Translations under genes and position numbers: made by a program | In this document: positions 28,510-34,803 of the stretch, piece after piece | How the letters are laid out: every line of letters begins with the position of its first letter | Numbering within the stretch: the stretch's first letter is position 1 | Assembly: GCA_025201375.1 (NCBI GenBank) | Contig: JAIWZP010000004.1 | Location: 682,001-746,000, forward strand | Direction: 5' to 3' | DNA length: 64,000 bases | From: Gongronella butleri | Lineage: Eukaryota; Mucoromycota; Mucoromycetes; Mucorales; Cunninghamellaceae | The notes under the pieces: generated by a model | Seen by the model: the letters and a program-made list of their open reading frames with translations, nothing else | Told to the model about the DNA's origin: nothing | The model's database searches: none

Positions 28510-29372
28510 ATGGCCGACACGACAAAAGCACGCGACGATATGACCCCCGAGGAGCGCGAAGCGTTTGACAAGCAGGAAAAGCTGCGCGAGGATGCGGAAC
28601 AGGCGGCGTTGCCTTACAAGTAAGCGAGAAAAAGGGATAAAGAGCAAAAAATACTGACGTTGCCCGTTTTTTTTTTTTCGTGTACACCAGGTGGAAGCAG
28701 ACGTTGCAAGATGTTGACGTGGTGATCCCTGTGCCTGCTGGCACGCGCGGCCGCGATCTGGAGGTCGTGCTGAAGAAAAAATCGATCAAGGTCGCGCTAA
28801 AGGGCCAAGCGCCTATTCTTGAAGTAAGACGCGTCACCGTGTGCAAAAATGCGCAAAGCTGACCGATTTTTTAGGGCGAGCTGTGCAAGGAAATCCAGGT
28901 GGACGAGAGCACGTGGTCCTTGCAGGATCAAAAGGAAGTGGAGGTGCATCTCGAAAAGCAAAACCAGATGGCTTGGTGGGAACACGTTGTGACCAGCGCG
29001 CCAAAGATCAACACCAAAAAGATCCAGCCCGAGAATTCAAAGTTGGGCGACCTCGACGGCGAGACGCGCGCCATGGTCGAGAAGATGATGGTAACACCTG
29101 CAAAAGAAGAGGCTGTGCCCATTTGAGTCATTTTAACGCTTTTTTTTCTAGTTTGACCAGCGACAAAAGGCGATGGGCAAGCCGGACAGCGACGCGCTCA
29201 AGAAGCAGGAGATGCTTGCAAAGTTCAAGGCGCAGCACCCGGAGATGGACGTAAGAAAACGAGAAAAAAAATCGCGCCTTTTTTTTTTTTTTTTTTGGCA
29301 CGCCATGGACACTGACGCGTAATCATTGGTTTTTCTTTTTCACAGTTTAGCAAGGTCAAGATGGACCAATGA
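28510..29372 (+). CDS. nudC: Nuclear movement protein NudC (CS domain)
   Basis: Exons 28510-28619, 28691-28823, 28875-29090, 29152-29250 and 29346-29372; 194 residues. A charged N-terminal helix leads to the CS/p23 domain, starting '[18 protein letters not shown]' and including '[16 protein letters not shown]' and '[15 protein letters not shown]', with the conserved 'WWEHVV'. The C-terminal '[16 protein letters not shown]' and '[13 protein letters not shown]' are typical of the NudC end. NudC acts with dynein/Lis1 as an Hsp90 co-chaperone in nuclear migration. The last exon is only 27 nt. AATAAA overlaps about 29382. The kinase gene on the other strand ends 129 bases away, so the transcripts converge. 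Confidence 0.93.
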
Positions 29373-29500: not shown

Positions 29501-32500
29501 CTAGGCAAAGTAAGGGTGATCGAGCAGCTGTGTGGCATTGCCGCGTTTGGCGGGATCACGGCTCAGCAGCTGTTTGATGAGTGCGCGGGCGTGTTTGTTT
29601 TTGATTTGGCGGTCGAGTTGGGGGATTTCGAGCTCTTTTTGGTCGTTCCAGCGCAGGCCATTGTTGAGGATGGGTGTGGATGACGAGGGGTGGGAGACAA
29701 AGTGCAGGATGGTCTCGTCCTTGATGGTGGCGGCGAACAGCGGGCGTTTTGTCTCGAGTTCGTACAAGACGCAGCCAAGGGCCCACAAATCGACGCTGGC
29801 GGTGGCCACGACGCCATTGGCGCCCTCGAGACCATAGGTCGTTGCGCGCGCGACCTCGGGCGGGCAATAGCGAGGCGTGATCACGCCTACACATTCCTCA
29901 CCAATCGTGCGACTCGCCTCGAAATCAATGAGCTTCCACGGACCTTGTGTGCGGTGCATTAAATTGCTCGGCTTGAGGTCGCAGAACGCGACGCCCTTTT
30001 CGTGGCACCATTTTAAGCAGCGCACAATGTCCATGGCGATGAATTTCGATTGACGATCATAAGCGGACGCGTCTGTGGCGTTTCTCGCGCGTCGAATGAC
30101 GGTGGACAGGGTCTCATCGAGGCGTTCCATGACCGTAAGGTATTTGACATCGTCGTCTTCATTATCATCATCGTGATTTTCGTCGTCTGTCTTGTGCTTT
30201 TGATGGTCACTCAGGGACGCCGACGATTGTGGGGTGCCGCGTGCAGTGGTGGAGGTGGACGACTCGTCTTGGATGGTCAGAACCTCGAGAAGATCAACGA
30301 CAAACGGCGATTTCAGCTTGACAAGTGACCTGCATTCGCGTTCCCAAGCCTCGCGTCTTCCAAACGACTTGACGACGGCATTTGAGCTCGATTCTGCTGA
30401 TTGAGGGCTGTGGACAGAAATGTACAGAATGCTATTTGTGGGCCCAATGACAGGGGCAATGGCTCGGTCGACGCGATAACGGCGTGGCAGCATATTGCCA
30501 ATGGCGGCAAGTGATGCATGCTTGTCATTGGCCAGGCTCGTTTCCTTTGGCGGCTCGTGGCTATGCTCTGTCGTCGTGGATGTGGTGGTAGTGGACGGTG
30601 TTGACACGGGCGCAGCATAATTGGCGCCATTGGGTGTGCCATTGGACGTGTGGGGCGGAGTAATGTTCTTTTCATCATCCAAAGTGCCATTGTTACTTGC
30701 ACTTTGCTGTTGTTGTTGGTTGTTGTGGATGGATTCGGCGCTTGCTGCAGCAGCAGCCGCCAAGAGGGTGGGATTTGCACTGAGCGTGGCTAGGCGGTCC
30801 AATGGGCTGACCGAATCGTACAATTCCGCCGTGTTGGGCACACGATGGTGCAATGTGTCGTTTGCGCCATCGTCAACTTGATCGGGCGACGAATTGGACG
30901 CGTCCGGAGCACTCGAGGACGCGGTGGGGGCACCATCGCCATGGGTGGTCGCGTCGTTAGGTGGTATCGGGTGGTGGTGATAATGTGTGGCGGCCGACGA
31001 GGACACTGGCCTTGCAACAGGCACGCTGGACGATGGATACTGGTGGTGCGTGAGCGGCACAACACGCGTCGTGTCCGTTGACGCGCCGCCAAGTTGCGAT
31101 GGCGCGCTATTGTTCGTCGCCGTTGTCGCAACGCTGAATTGCTTGCTCGCACCAGGGATATATTGGATCGGCGCCTCGGGGAGTACCGCAATTGAATCGT
31201 CCTCGTCGCCCGTCGCCGTGCTAAATGCACGCGAAAGAGACGCGTCTTTTTTTTTTTTTGGAAAGAGAATGAGAAAAAATGAGAGAAAAAAATGAGAAAA
31301 AAATGAAATTTGAGATCTTCCACTTGCAATTTGGCTTACCATCTCTTTTGCGGGCGGCAAGATCGTGGTGATAGGCGTGTGTAATAGGGACATTTCGGGT
31401 GGTTGTGGCGGTTGTGTTGGTTTTTATGCTTTGAAGGACTTCCATGCTGCTGCTGACGGGCGCGTCCTCGTGGCGATGGCTGCTGGTGACGTCATCTTCG
31501 CGGTCCGAGTTGTAGTGATGGATTCGGATGCTATTGTTCATGTGAGCAGCGAATTGGGACGCGGGTACCGAAAATTCGTTGGGTTTTTGCGTAATGACCT
31601 CATTAGGGACCTGGCCGGGGCCTGACAGGTCATTGGAGCCGCCTGCAAGGTACTGCTTGCTTGCGAGCGAATGGCGCGACCCGCGCAGCGAGTGTGGGGA
31701 CGCGGTGGCGGCGTCATCGGAGGGCGACATTAAATCGAGGACGACATGGCCGGTACTGGTGCCTGCAGCCATATCGCCCGCGCTCTGGTGGCCATCGGAG
31801 CGTCTGTAGAACGAATCGGTGTTGGTATTGCCTGTTTTTGCGGTCCAGGCCTTGGACACGCGTTTGTGGCTGTGCGAGATCTGATTGGCCGAGTCATGGA
31901 AGCCGAATCCGTGATTGTCGTCGTGATAATGGTTTTGAGGGTCATCGTAGTGGGTGTCGTGGTGGACTGGGCTGCCATAGCGCCAATAATAATCATCTTG
32001 GTCGTCATCGTCATCCTGGTCCATCATTTTCTTTTCTGTGTGCAATGATTTGCCCGTTTGCTGCTCTTTTTGCTGATTTCGACGGCGACGATAACAGAAA
32101 AAGGCAAGCGCACCGACAATGGCCAATGCCGCCACACCACCAACAACACCACCAGCAATGGCACCGACATTGGCACCGGCGCCATTGTTGCCATTGCCAT
32201 TGTTGCCATTGTTGCCATCGCTGCCATTTCCTTGCTGATTGGACGCGACGCCATTGGATTTGACATTGGACCACGACCACGCATTATAGTCGAGCACATA
32301 GATGTTATTGTCCGTGTACGACGAGCCCCAGCCGCCATAAATGTAGATTTTTTGATGGTTGGGATCATGGACGGCGGAATGGCCCATGCGCACACGTGGC
32401 CCCTGGTCCTGATTCGCCATATTTTGATAATACCACGTGAAATTCGGATACGCCGACGCATCCAGGATCCACACGCCCGAGTCGGACGCCGTCGTCGTGC

Positions 32501-33511
32501 CGCCACCATACACAATCATCTTGTTTTGCAAACAAGTCGCCGTGTGCAAGCGTCGCGGGCCCGGAATCGCCCCATTGACCGACCCAGGATTCACCTGCAA
32601 GTTCCACGTACTGCTGTTCAGATCGTACACGTACACGTTGCGCGACGCGTCCGCCGGATTGCCCGTCTGCGTGCCGCCAAAGGTGACCAAGCAATTGCAA
32701 GATGAAATGAAGCATGTCGAATGGTCCGTGATCGCAGGCCCATTGGACCCAGAGCTCCATGCATACGAATTGGCGTCGAGGAAATAAAGGCTGTTGAGCA
32801 CCGCGCCATTCATGCGATTGCCATTGCCATCCACCCCCACGCCGCCAAACGTGTAAATTCGATTGTCGACAATGGTCATTGTGTAGCCAGATGCCGTGGC
32901 AGGTGGATCTATGAGTGGAAAATAAAAAGAGAGAGGCAAAAAGTGGGCAATGGAGGGCAAAAGAGGGAAAGAGAAAAGGTCGGGATGAGCACATTTTGGG
33001 GATTTGAGGGTGGATCACCTCATTTTTTTTCTTACTGAGCGAGGTGGGATTGGCCCACGACCAGACATTTGTATCGAGCTTTTGTAAGAGGGCGCCATTG
33101 TTGGTGGTGTTGCTAGCGAGCATGAGTGTCTGGCCGGCGGCGGGCAATGACACCGCCTGGAAAAACACCTGAAGGTCGTTTGTGGCGTAATTGGAAAGCG
33201 CCTGGGCATCGTACCAGGTGCGGTTTTGTGAGTGCCATGCCCACACCGAGTTAGTGCCCATTGCGCTTGTCGTGTTCCCCGAGGTGTCCGTCGTACCACC
33301 ATAAACAATCACATACGGGTCTTGGAACACTGGAAAAAAAAACGCAATGGATGAGCAAATGCGCAATGGCTCTCGAAGAAAAAAACTTACCCGACGCATG
33401 ACCGGCTTTCCAAGGCACATTTGTCGACACGGTGCCTGGCGACACAGACTGCGCGCGGGCAACTGGGAAAAGAGCGAGAAAAAACAAGGAGGGCCGCTTC
33501 CTGAGCTTCAT
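29501..33511 (-). CDS. Kelch-domain, single-pass membrane protein with cytoplasmic protein kinase domain
   Basis: Exons on the minus strand: 33391-33511, 33036-33329, 31340-32908 and 29501-31245; 1242 residues. Residues 1-20 form a signal peptide ('SLFFLALFPVARA'). Residues ~40-340 carry kelch-type beta-propeller repeats ('YTFGGVGVDGNGN', 'LVTFGGTQTG', 'MIVYGGGTTT', 'IYIYGGWGSS'). A Gly/Asn-rich stalk leads to one membrane helix near 390-412 ('AIAGGVVGGVAALAIVGALA') followed by 'CYRRRR'. A long low-complexity cytoplasmic linker precedes a protein kinase domain from about residue 918 to the end. 'VVKSF' gives the ATP-binding Lys. The catalytic loop is 'FCDLKPSNLM' (HRD replaced by FCD, but Asp, Lys and Asn kept), DFG is 'DFE', and 'CPPEVA' is the APE-like motif. 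A glycine loop is not obvious. The last intron uses acceptor 31246 after an A-run, the only acceptor that keeps frame. AATAAA is near 29407. Confidence 0.72.
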
Positions 33512-34227
33512 GACAAAGAAATTGGGACAAAAAAAAAAGTAGAGCAACAAAGGGGTGCCTCACGTGGCAAGGAACGATCGAGACAATAGAGGCGGGGATG
33601 CAGGAAAACGAGGGGAAAAGCGAACAACAAGGAAAACGAGAGCGAGAACGGGTGGCCAAAAAAAAAAAAAAAAAAAAACCTTTCGCGAAAAAGAAAAAGA
33701 AGAACAAGAGCAAAACGAAAAAAAGGGAACCCAACCCTTTTTGTGCTCCTTTTTTTGCTTGCTTTTTGCGCGGAGTTTGATCACGCCCTGAAATTGAAGC
33801 CTTGTCTTTTCGTCACTGACGCGCCCTGCACGCTCCTTGATTGGCCATGTCTTATTTGATTTATTTCTGACCCTTTCCCGGGATGACTATAAGCACATTG
33901 ATGCAACATGCTGCAACATGACAGCCCGCATTTCTCTCAATTTTCCATTTTTTTTAAAAAAAAACAAAAAGCACAATAAAAACCTTGGCTGCCACTTTGC
34001 AATCTCCATCTCCTTTTTTGGCTGCGTGGTCTATTTTTGTCTACGATTTTTTTTTTGCTACGCGCGGCTGTCTGTTTCTCCAAAAGGACAAATTGGGTCT
34101 TGGGGCCTTCATTTTCACACATCATCTTGCTTTTTCTTTATTTTGATTGAATGGGGGAGGAGGAGAATGGCAAAGGGAGCCAAGGGGGAGGGGTATCACG
34201 GTCCATCACGACCCATCACGCTGGGTT
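33512..34227. other. Intergenic region upstream of the kelch-kinase gene
   Basis: Purine-rich from 33570 to 33725, including a run of about 20 A (33659-33678); on the coding strand of the kelch-kinase gene this is a pyrimidine-rich leader. A TATA-like word is not convincing. The part after 33780 holds the 3' flank of the AT-hook gene. No gene is seen. Confidence 0.45.
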
Positions 34228-34803
34228 TCACTCTTTTGTATTTTGTTTTCGATGTTTTTGATATTTTTGATGCTTGGACCGCCGAATTGCGCGGGAAAAA
34301 TTGCTGTCCTCCTCATCTGAAAACCCGCCAAAGCCATTGTCTTCACAATCATCCAAAATCAGCAGCTGCTGAAGGTCCAAGGCTTGCGTCACCTTGGTCC
34401 CCACTTTTTCACCCAAAATAGCCGCTGGGCCCTGGATCGACGTACTTTGTGTGTTCGATTGGCCGCTGTTCTTGTTGCTATTGGCGCAATTGGGCGCCAA
34501 TGGCTGCTCAGACCGTGCTTGTGGCGCCAGTGGGGGTGACAGTGATGGCGAATGCCGCTTTGCACGCTTGTTGTGCCTATAATTGACGCCTTTAGTGCCT
34601 GGTGGACGCCCGGGCCTGCGCTTGGGCGCCGCTGCTTGGACGCTGCTGAGGTCAACTTGCTTGCGCGGACGTCCCATCGGCTTTTTGGGTAGCCCGCGAC
34701 CATACGACGTGCGCTTCCGCCCAAAAAGCGCGTCAAAGCTGCTAGCTTCCATATCACCTTCGTCTATAGGCCGCTTTTGGCCACCGCCATCCGCCTGATC
34801 CAT
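34228..34803 (-). CDS. AT-hook DNA-binding protein
   Basis: A single-exon gene of 191 residues. Two AT-hooks are visible at about residues 42-75: 'KKPMGRPRKQ' and 'KRRPGRPPGTKG', each with the R-G-R-P or G-R-P core that binds the minor groove of AT-rich DNA. Around them the sequence is basic and Pro/Ser-rich. The C-terminus has an acidic patch ('LILDDCEDNGF', 'SDEEDSNF') followed by a basic tail ('RRSKHQKYQKHRKQ'). The protein is likely nuclear, a chromatin or transcription accessory factor; nothing narrows its targets. ATG 34803 begins 'MDQADGGG'. The frame stays open upstream, but that part is translated leader with Phe-rich low complexity. The gene is divergent from the mL59 gene. Confidence 0.75.
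   Translation of the reverse strand: MDQADGGGQKRPIDEGDMEASSFDALFGRKRTSYGRGLPKKPMGRPRKQVDLSSVQAAAPKRRPGRPPGTKGVNYRHNKRAKRHSPSLSPPLAPQARSEQPLAPNCANSNKNSGQSNTQSTSIQGPAAILGEKVGTKVTQALDLQQLLILDDCEDNGFGGFSDEEDSNFSRAIRRSKHQKYQKHRKQNTKE

What the first reader, a model, noticed from the sequence alone, without database searches (positions are those of the whole stretch)
29501..33511. Receptor-like kinase architecture in a fungus: secreted kelch propeller, one membrane helix, cytoplasmic kinase
Seen: signal peptide, four or more kelch repeats, a glycine/alanine membrane helix followed by CYRRRR, a long low-complexity linker, then a kinase domain with VVKSF, FCDLKPSNLM and DFE, all in one joined frame (1242 residues). 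Known: fungi mostly lack receptor-like kinases of the plant or animal layout. The kinase is atypical (HRD to FCD, DFG to DFE, no clear glycine loop) yet keeps the Asp, Lys and Asn needed for phosphotransfer. Inference: a surface sensor of a glycan or wall ligand that signals directly.
Basis: partly seen in the sequence, partly recalled or inferred. Interest (0 to 1): 0.75.

Follow-up and report, generated by a model that had tools for sequence, protein, structure and literature searches.

The report
Fungal receptor-like kinase with kelch sensor
A soil mould and its relatives carry a gene for a membrane-spanning protein with a propeller-shaped sensor on one side of the membrane and a protein kinase on the other, a layout that papers on fungi say fungi do not have; its activity and what it senses are untested.

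Summary
Real, correctly read, and not a single odd gene. Four minus-strand exons (33511-29501) encode 1242 residues, identical to a deposited "hypothetical protein" of Gongronella butleri: signal peptide, kelch propeller, one membrane helix, ~500-residue linker, protein kinase. Three searches gathered 153 proteins (this one included); 133 hold both domains, all 133 as kelch-helix-kinase. Named sources are Mucorales, Umbelopsidales, Endogonales and Mortierellales. The kinase oddities are fixed: HRD Arg is Cys in 146 of 146, DFG Gly is Glu in 148 of 148; ATP lysine, helix-C Glu, Asn and metal Asp never vary, catalytic Asp is kept in 144 of 146. The best sequence matches shown are CDK/MAPK kinases, so it probably arose independently of plant and animal receptor kinases. 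Conserved linker islands on both sides of the questioned intron support the joined frame. Two papers state that fungi lack receptor kinases or their domain architecture; this family contradicts the architectural claim. Untested: catalysis, membrane (surface or ER), ligand.

The parts
33391..33511 (-). exon 1: start codon, signal peptide (residues 1-20), start of ectodomain
   Evidence: donor GTAAGT at 33390
33036..33329 (-). exon 2: ectodomain, residues 41-138; holds the two sequons N76 and N114, kept in 23 of 23 chosen Mucoromycotina sequences
31340..32908 (-). exon 3: rest of kelch propeller, membrane helix, first half of linker (residues 139-661)
29501..31245 (-). exon 4: second half of linker and kinase domain (residues 662-1242), stop 29503-29501
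32232..33448 (-). kelch beta-propeller ectodomain, residues 21-364 (genomic span includes introns 33330-33390 and 32909-33035)
32088..32174 (-). single transmembrane helix (residues 384-412) followed by basic stop-transfer
   Evidence: a helix in 133 of 133 two-domain proteins, net basic flank in 131
31246..31339 (-). intron 3 (GTAAGC ... poly-A AG); frame-preserving acceptor at 31245, alternative AG at 31220 would shift the frame
31548..31610 (-). conserved linker island VPNE..QKPNEFSVP (residues 572-592)
31410..31463 (-). conserved linker island APxSSSMEVLxSIKTN (residues 621-638), just before intron 3
31136..31171 (-). conserved linker island PIQYIPGASKQF (residues 687-698), just after intron 3
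31019..31060 (-). conserved linker island VPLTHHQYPSSSVP (residues 724-737), best conserved part of the linker
30782..30820 (-). conserved linker island YDSVSPLDRLATL (residues 804-816)
29504..30493 (-). protein kinase domain, residues 913-1242
30146..30283 (-). acidic low-complexity insert in the kinase domain (residues 983-1028), low model confidence and low conservation
29963..29986 (-). catalytic loop FCDLKPSN (residues 1082-1089); Cys in place of HRD Arg in 146 of 146
29918..29926 (-). DFE in place of DFG (residues 1102-1104); Glu in 148 of 148

Best explanation
A single-pass (type I) receptor-like Ser/Thr kinase, conserved in Mucoromycotina and Mortierellomycotina, built independently of plant RLKs and animal receptor kinases. 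Shown by sequence or prediction: signal peptide, lumenal or extracellular kelch propeller, one membrane helix, long poorly conserved linker with conserved islands, kinase fold with an invariant non-RD (FCD/YCD) catalytic loop and an invariant D[FLM]E metal motif. Inferred: the propeller binds a ligand outside the cytosol, more likely a peptide or protein than a glycan; binding clusters or reorients the receptor; the kinase, which lacks the HRD arginine that usually couples activity to activation-loop phosphorylation, then phosphorylates substrates docked on the linker islands. Plasma membrane is the likeliest site.
Against: No expression, localisation, ligand or activity data. 21 of 60 N-complete proteins fall below my hydropathy cut for a signal peptide: 5 narrowly (1.7-1.8), 16 clearly, among them both named Umbelopsis models and a similar unnamed one; these may be mis-called starts. 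Outside Mucoromycotina the secreted-face marks are fewer: in the 14-row alignment with two Mortierellales only Asn 114 and Cys 204 and 264 are invariant. Glu for the DFG glycine and loss of the glycine loop could lower or abolish catalysis; two relatives lack the catalytic Asp (Gly, Ala). Kelch proteins are mostly cytosolic (recalled). A trypanosome kelch membrane kinase sits mainly in the ER.
Confidence: 0.62

Rival explanations
1. An ER-resident lumenal sensor that works like IRE1 or PERK: the propeller samples lumenal proteins and the kinase reports stress to the cytosol.
For: IRE1 has the same overall topology (recalled). A T. brucei kinase with a predicted signal peptide, two kelch domains and predicted membrane helices was localised mainly to the ER (PMC8519429, passages). 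A secreted-side propeller fits the ER lumen equally well.
Against: No IRE1-type RNase domain in this protein; the genome carries that domain elsewhere (C97), so IRE1 itself is a different gene. No obvious C-terminal ER-retrieval motif (ends LLDHPYFA).
Confidence: 0.2
2. A pseudokinase receptor or wall-membrane anchor: the kinase fold binds partners and signals without phosphotransfer.
For: DFG Gly is Glu in 148 of 148, HRD His and Arg are lost, the glycine loop is reduced to one Gly, and two relatives have Gly or Ala for the catalytic Asp. For the non-RD plant receptor EFR catalytic activity is dispensable for immunity (PMC8463890 passages).
Against: ATP Lys, helix-C Glu, Asn and metal Asp never vary and the catalytic Asp is kept in 144 of 146, across two phyla. 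Choline kinases, a distant kinase-like family, use an IDFE motif actively (recalled, not tested).
Confidence: 0.16
3. An annotation artefact: two neighbouring genes (kelch-membrane protein and kinase) joined by a wrong intron call.
For: The acceptor at 31245 directly follows a poly-A run; a more ordinary-looking acceptor at 31220 breaks the frame.
Against: 133 of 133 two-domain proteins join the domains in the same order; linker islands on both sides of the junction are conserved; SRAFST shared with Hesseltinella starts upstream of 31220. These are predicted proteins, not transcripts.
Confidence: 0.02

Closest known systems
Plant receptor-like kinases (RLK/Pelle), especially non-RD immune receptors such as EFR
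   Same: Signal peptide, ectodomain, one helix, cytosolic Ser/Thr kinase; EFR also has Cys for the HRD Arg (PMC8463890 passages)
   Different: Ectodomain is kelch, not LRR; the best sequence matches shown are CDK/MAPK kinases, no RLK/Pelle entry among the rows shown; DxE for DFG
Animal receptor tyrosine kinases
   Same: Overall topology; one relative (Absidia glauca) is auto-named receptor protein-tyrosine kinase
   Different: Pkinase model 114 bits but PK_Tyr_Ser-Thr 17.8 bits, under its cut-off of 23.1; DLKPSN loop of Ser/Thr type (recalled)
IRE1 (fungal ER membrane kinase)
   Same: Type I topology with lumenal sensor and cytosolic kinase (recalled)
   Different: No RNase domain; that domain lies elsewhere in this genome
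Trypanosoma brucei Tb927.5.3150
   Same: Predicted signal peptide, kelch domains, predicted membrane helices, kinase (PMC8519429 passages)
   Different: Distant lineage; relatedness not tested; topology uncertain in the paper; mainly ER
Fungal hybrid histidine kinases
   Same: Named in print as the only fungal group resembling receptor kinases (PMC6733946 passage)
   Different: Different kinase superfamily and chemistry (recalled)
KLHDC2/3, LZTR1, Keap1 kelch propellers
   Different: Those are cytosolic, not membrane receptors (recalled)

Membership tests
Eukaryotic protein kinase superfamily (PF00069) | Match above the curated cut-off and kinase fold | tested here: met
Eukaryotic protein kinase superfamily (PF00069) | Canonical catalytic set: VAIK Lys, helix-C Glu, HRD, Asn, DFG | tested here: inconclusive
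   Lys, Glu, Asn, metal Asp invariant and Asp 144 of 146; HRD is [FY]CD and DFG is D[FLM]E
Kelch propeller | Kelch repeats closing a propeller | tested here: met
Receptor-like kinase (by architecture) | Signal peptide, ectodomain, one membrane helix, cytosolic kinase in one protein | tested here: met
   topology is predicted from sequence only; this protein and 38 others of 60 N-complete ones pass a simple signal-peptide cut
Receptor-like kinase (by function) | Plasma-membrane location and ligand-driven signalling | not testable with these tools
   No expression, localisation or ligand data
Plant RLK/Pelle family | Kinase domain belongs to the RLK/Pelle (TKL) clade | tested here: inconclusive
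   The 60 PDB rows shown are p38 or CDK12 with the profile (1783 matched) and MAPK or CDK with one sequence (1148 matched); the two best own-genome kinase frames look like CDKs, the third like an AGC kinase. PDB is biased; no kinome-wide tree was built
Receptor tyrosine kinase | Tyrosine-kinase catalytic domain (PF07714 above cut-off) | tested here: not met
   17.8 bits against 23.1 for this protein; many relatives do list PF07714 in the precomputed column
IRE1 | Ribonuc_2-5A RNase domain after the kinase | tested here: not met
   Absent from the protein; present elsewhere in the genome, C97:67426-68031

The most novel reading that the evidence does not exclude
A third, independent invention of cell-surface receptor kinases, in early-diverging fungi: a CMGC-like kinase with its own catalytic signature ([FY]CD ... 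D[FLM]E) coupled through the membrane to a kelch propeller that recognises peptides or proteins of other microbes, hosts or the fungus's own hyphae, working like a plant non-RD pattern-recognition receptor.
Probability: 0.3. Interest if true: 0.9.

Novelty: new variant of a known kind. Interest (0 to 1): 0.73.

Why it matters
[quoted passage not shown] I could not see which Mucoromycota it used). A family with that architecture, fixed across two fungal phyla and present in databases under Phycomyces and Rhizopus names, contradicts the architectural claim and gives a concrete gene to delete and localise. If it signals, it is an independent route to receptor kinases and a candidate sensor in fungi that live with plants, bacteria and other moulds. 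It also offers a natural test of how a kinase works with Glu in place of the DFG glycine.

Tried and rejected
Separate kelch and kinase genes, the alternative acceptor and intron retention were considered and rejected on relatives' architecture and island conservation. IRE1 was rejected as identity. A free-standing kinase progenitor was sought with a 20-row kinase alignment, which takes proteins of about 180-580 aa: 21 hits at E <= 1e-20. Four carry organism names (Spinellus, Dissophora twice, Modicella), seven only generic labels, ten none, so the origin of 17 is unknown; weaker hits were not asked for and only the 7998 candidates sharing most words were scored, so absence of a progenitor is weak evidence. 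Close paralogs in the own genome: none (best other kinase match 31% identity, E 3.8e-14; other kelch matches 26-33%). The kelch loci L023-L028 were looked at for a membrane helix plus kinase: no kinase motif in the frames shown (introns ignored). Kinase-group assignment is only by nearest match; no kinome tree was made. In one search my rooting step failed (the common ancestor of the 16 Mortierellales tips spanned all 63), but the printed tree sets them apart from the Mucoromycotina (support 0.786). One search read the wrong frame and was not used; the script stopped with an error and was rewritten. Literature: of ten searches, eight bear on the family; two of them returned no paper, one returned two papers and the others gave capped listings, in which I saw no description of it. 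Subscription papers are not held. Foldseek and VIA rows shown name only kinases and kelch-type proteins, apart from whole complexes and designed propellers; families not listed are not excluded.

Full report
What is there. The minus strand from 33511 to 29501 holds four exons (33511-33391, 33329-33036, 32908-31340, 31245-29501) that join into 1242 residues. The same protein, letter for letter, is deposited as BC940DRAFT_290850, "hypothetical protein", Gongronella butleri, a mould of the order Mucorales. Pfam finds a kelch domain (PF24681, E 4.8e-39), a membrane-juxtamembrane segment at 389-419 and a protein kinase (PF00069, E 8e-33). The hydropathy maximum of the whole protein is at residues 384-412, followed by a basic run.

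The questioned junction. The frame depends on intron 3 (31246-31339), whose acceptor follows a poly-A run. Using the AG at 31220 instead gives an 804-residue product without kinase, and keeping the intron gives 700 residues. Two lines favour the in-frame acceptor. First, in an alignment of 23 chosen sequences (this one included; Mucorales and Umbelopsis only, of 153 collected) the linker, otherwise poorly conserved (mean identity to this protein 0.36 and 0.27 for its halves), contains islands on both sides of the junction: QKPNEFSVP and SSSMEVL in exon 3, PIQYIPGASKQFS, PLTHHQYPSSSVP and SVSPLDRLATL in exon 4. Second, SRAFST is shared with Hesseltinella, and its first four residues are coded at 31234-31223, upstream of 31220. 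These are comparisons of predicted proteins; no transcript was seen.

The family. A search of the kinase region among proteins of similar length gave 281 matches at E <= 0.001, of which the best 120 were listed. A search from a Mortierellales member gave 108, all listed; apart from two partial matches at 1e-12 and 1e-10 the weakest is at 2.4e-37, and no generic kinase follows. A third search with a kinase alignment gave 21 shorter proteins at E <= 1e-20. Together they are 153 proteins, this one included. All 153 match the family kinase profile (they were found by it or by its members), 133 also match the kelch profile, and 133 of these 133 have the order kelch, helix, kinase; 131 have a net basic flank after the helix; the linker runs from 177 to 519 residues, median 374. 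The 20 without kelch match are shorter (156-810 residues). Named sources belong to Mucorales, Umbelopsidales, Endogonales and Mortierellales (names; one species each looked up, other placements recalled); many metagenome hits are unnamed. Among the names I saw none from Glomeromycotina, Zoopagomycota, chytrids or Dikarya; 161 hits were not listed and the search reaches only relatives that share exact words, so absence elsewhere is not proven. In a kinase tree of 63 sequences (those I had labelled, of 153) the Mortierellales tips fall apart from the Mucoromycotina tips (support 0.786), with Jimgerdemannia and Umbelopsis outside Mucorales and extra copies in several genera (my rooting step failed there). 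That fits descent from a common ancestor.

Mechanism. Most likely a type I receptor-like kinase: the propeller samples a ligand outside the cytosol, and the non-RD kinase signals through partners recruited by the linker islands. Non-RD kinases are linked in print to innate immune receptors, and the plant receptor EFR has the same Arg-to-Cys change; yet EFR's catalytic activity is dispensable for immunity (PMC8463890, passages), so a non-catalytic mode must be kept open. The ER alternative is real: a trypanosome kinase with predicted signal peptide and kelch domains localises mainly to the ER (PMC8519429, passages). The protein is not IRE1: it lacks the RNase domain, which the genome carries elsewhere.

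What is known. [quoted passage not shown] its main text does not name Phycomyces, Mortierella, Rhizopus or Umbelopsis, so I do not know which of these it covered. A fungal kinome comparison (PMC2838846, term search only) does not mention kelch. Eight of my ten literature searches bear on the family; in their listings, most of them capped, I saw no description of it; no subscription papers are held. Databases carry it as hypothetical, or misnamed: F-box only protein 42, negative regulator of mitotic exit, cyclin-dependent kinase 12 or 13, once receptor protein-tyrosine kinase.

Verdict. Observation confirmed; interpretation partly supported. A new variant of a known kind: receptor-kinase architecture of apparently separate origin in fungi. 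Function, membrane and ligand remain to be shown.

Noticed in passing
window 28510-29372, + strand: Convergent neighbour gene with a CS domain (PF04969, E 1.2e-21), NudC-like (name recalled).
   Followed up: partly
window 34228-34803, - strand: Small basic protein with GRPRK and RRPGRPPG AT-hook-like motifs (recalled); no Pfam match.
   Followed up: partly
window from 35198, + strand: Gene for mitochondrial ribosomal protein mL59 (PF18126, E 7.9e-12), followed by a poly-A run in the reading frame.
   Followed up: partly
G000:C97:67426-69030: Likely IRE1 gene of this genome: RNase domain next to a kinase match.
   Followed up: no
P0053 (Rhizopus stolonifer): Deposited relative lists an HMG-box domain as well as kelch and kinase, perhaps a gene-model fusion.
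   Followed up: no
relatives in Circinella, Phascolomyces, Lichtheimia, Dichotomocladium (tree): A second paralog clade with shorter linkers (positions) exists in these genera; in Gongronella no close second copy was found.
   Followed up: partly
window, e.g. 33656-33680 (upstream) and 31247-31259 (intron 3): Long A or T runs are common in introns and intergenic stretches here, so acceptor and length calls may suffer from homopolymer errors.
   Followed up: no
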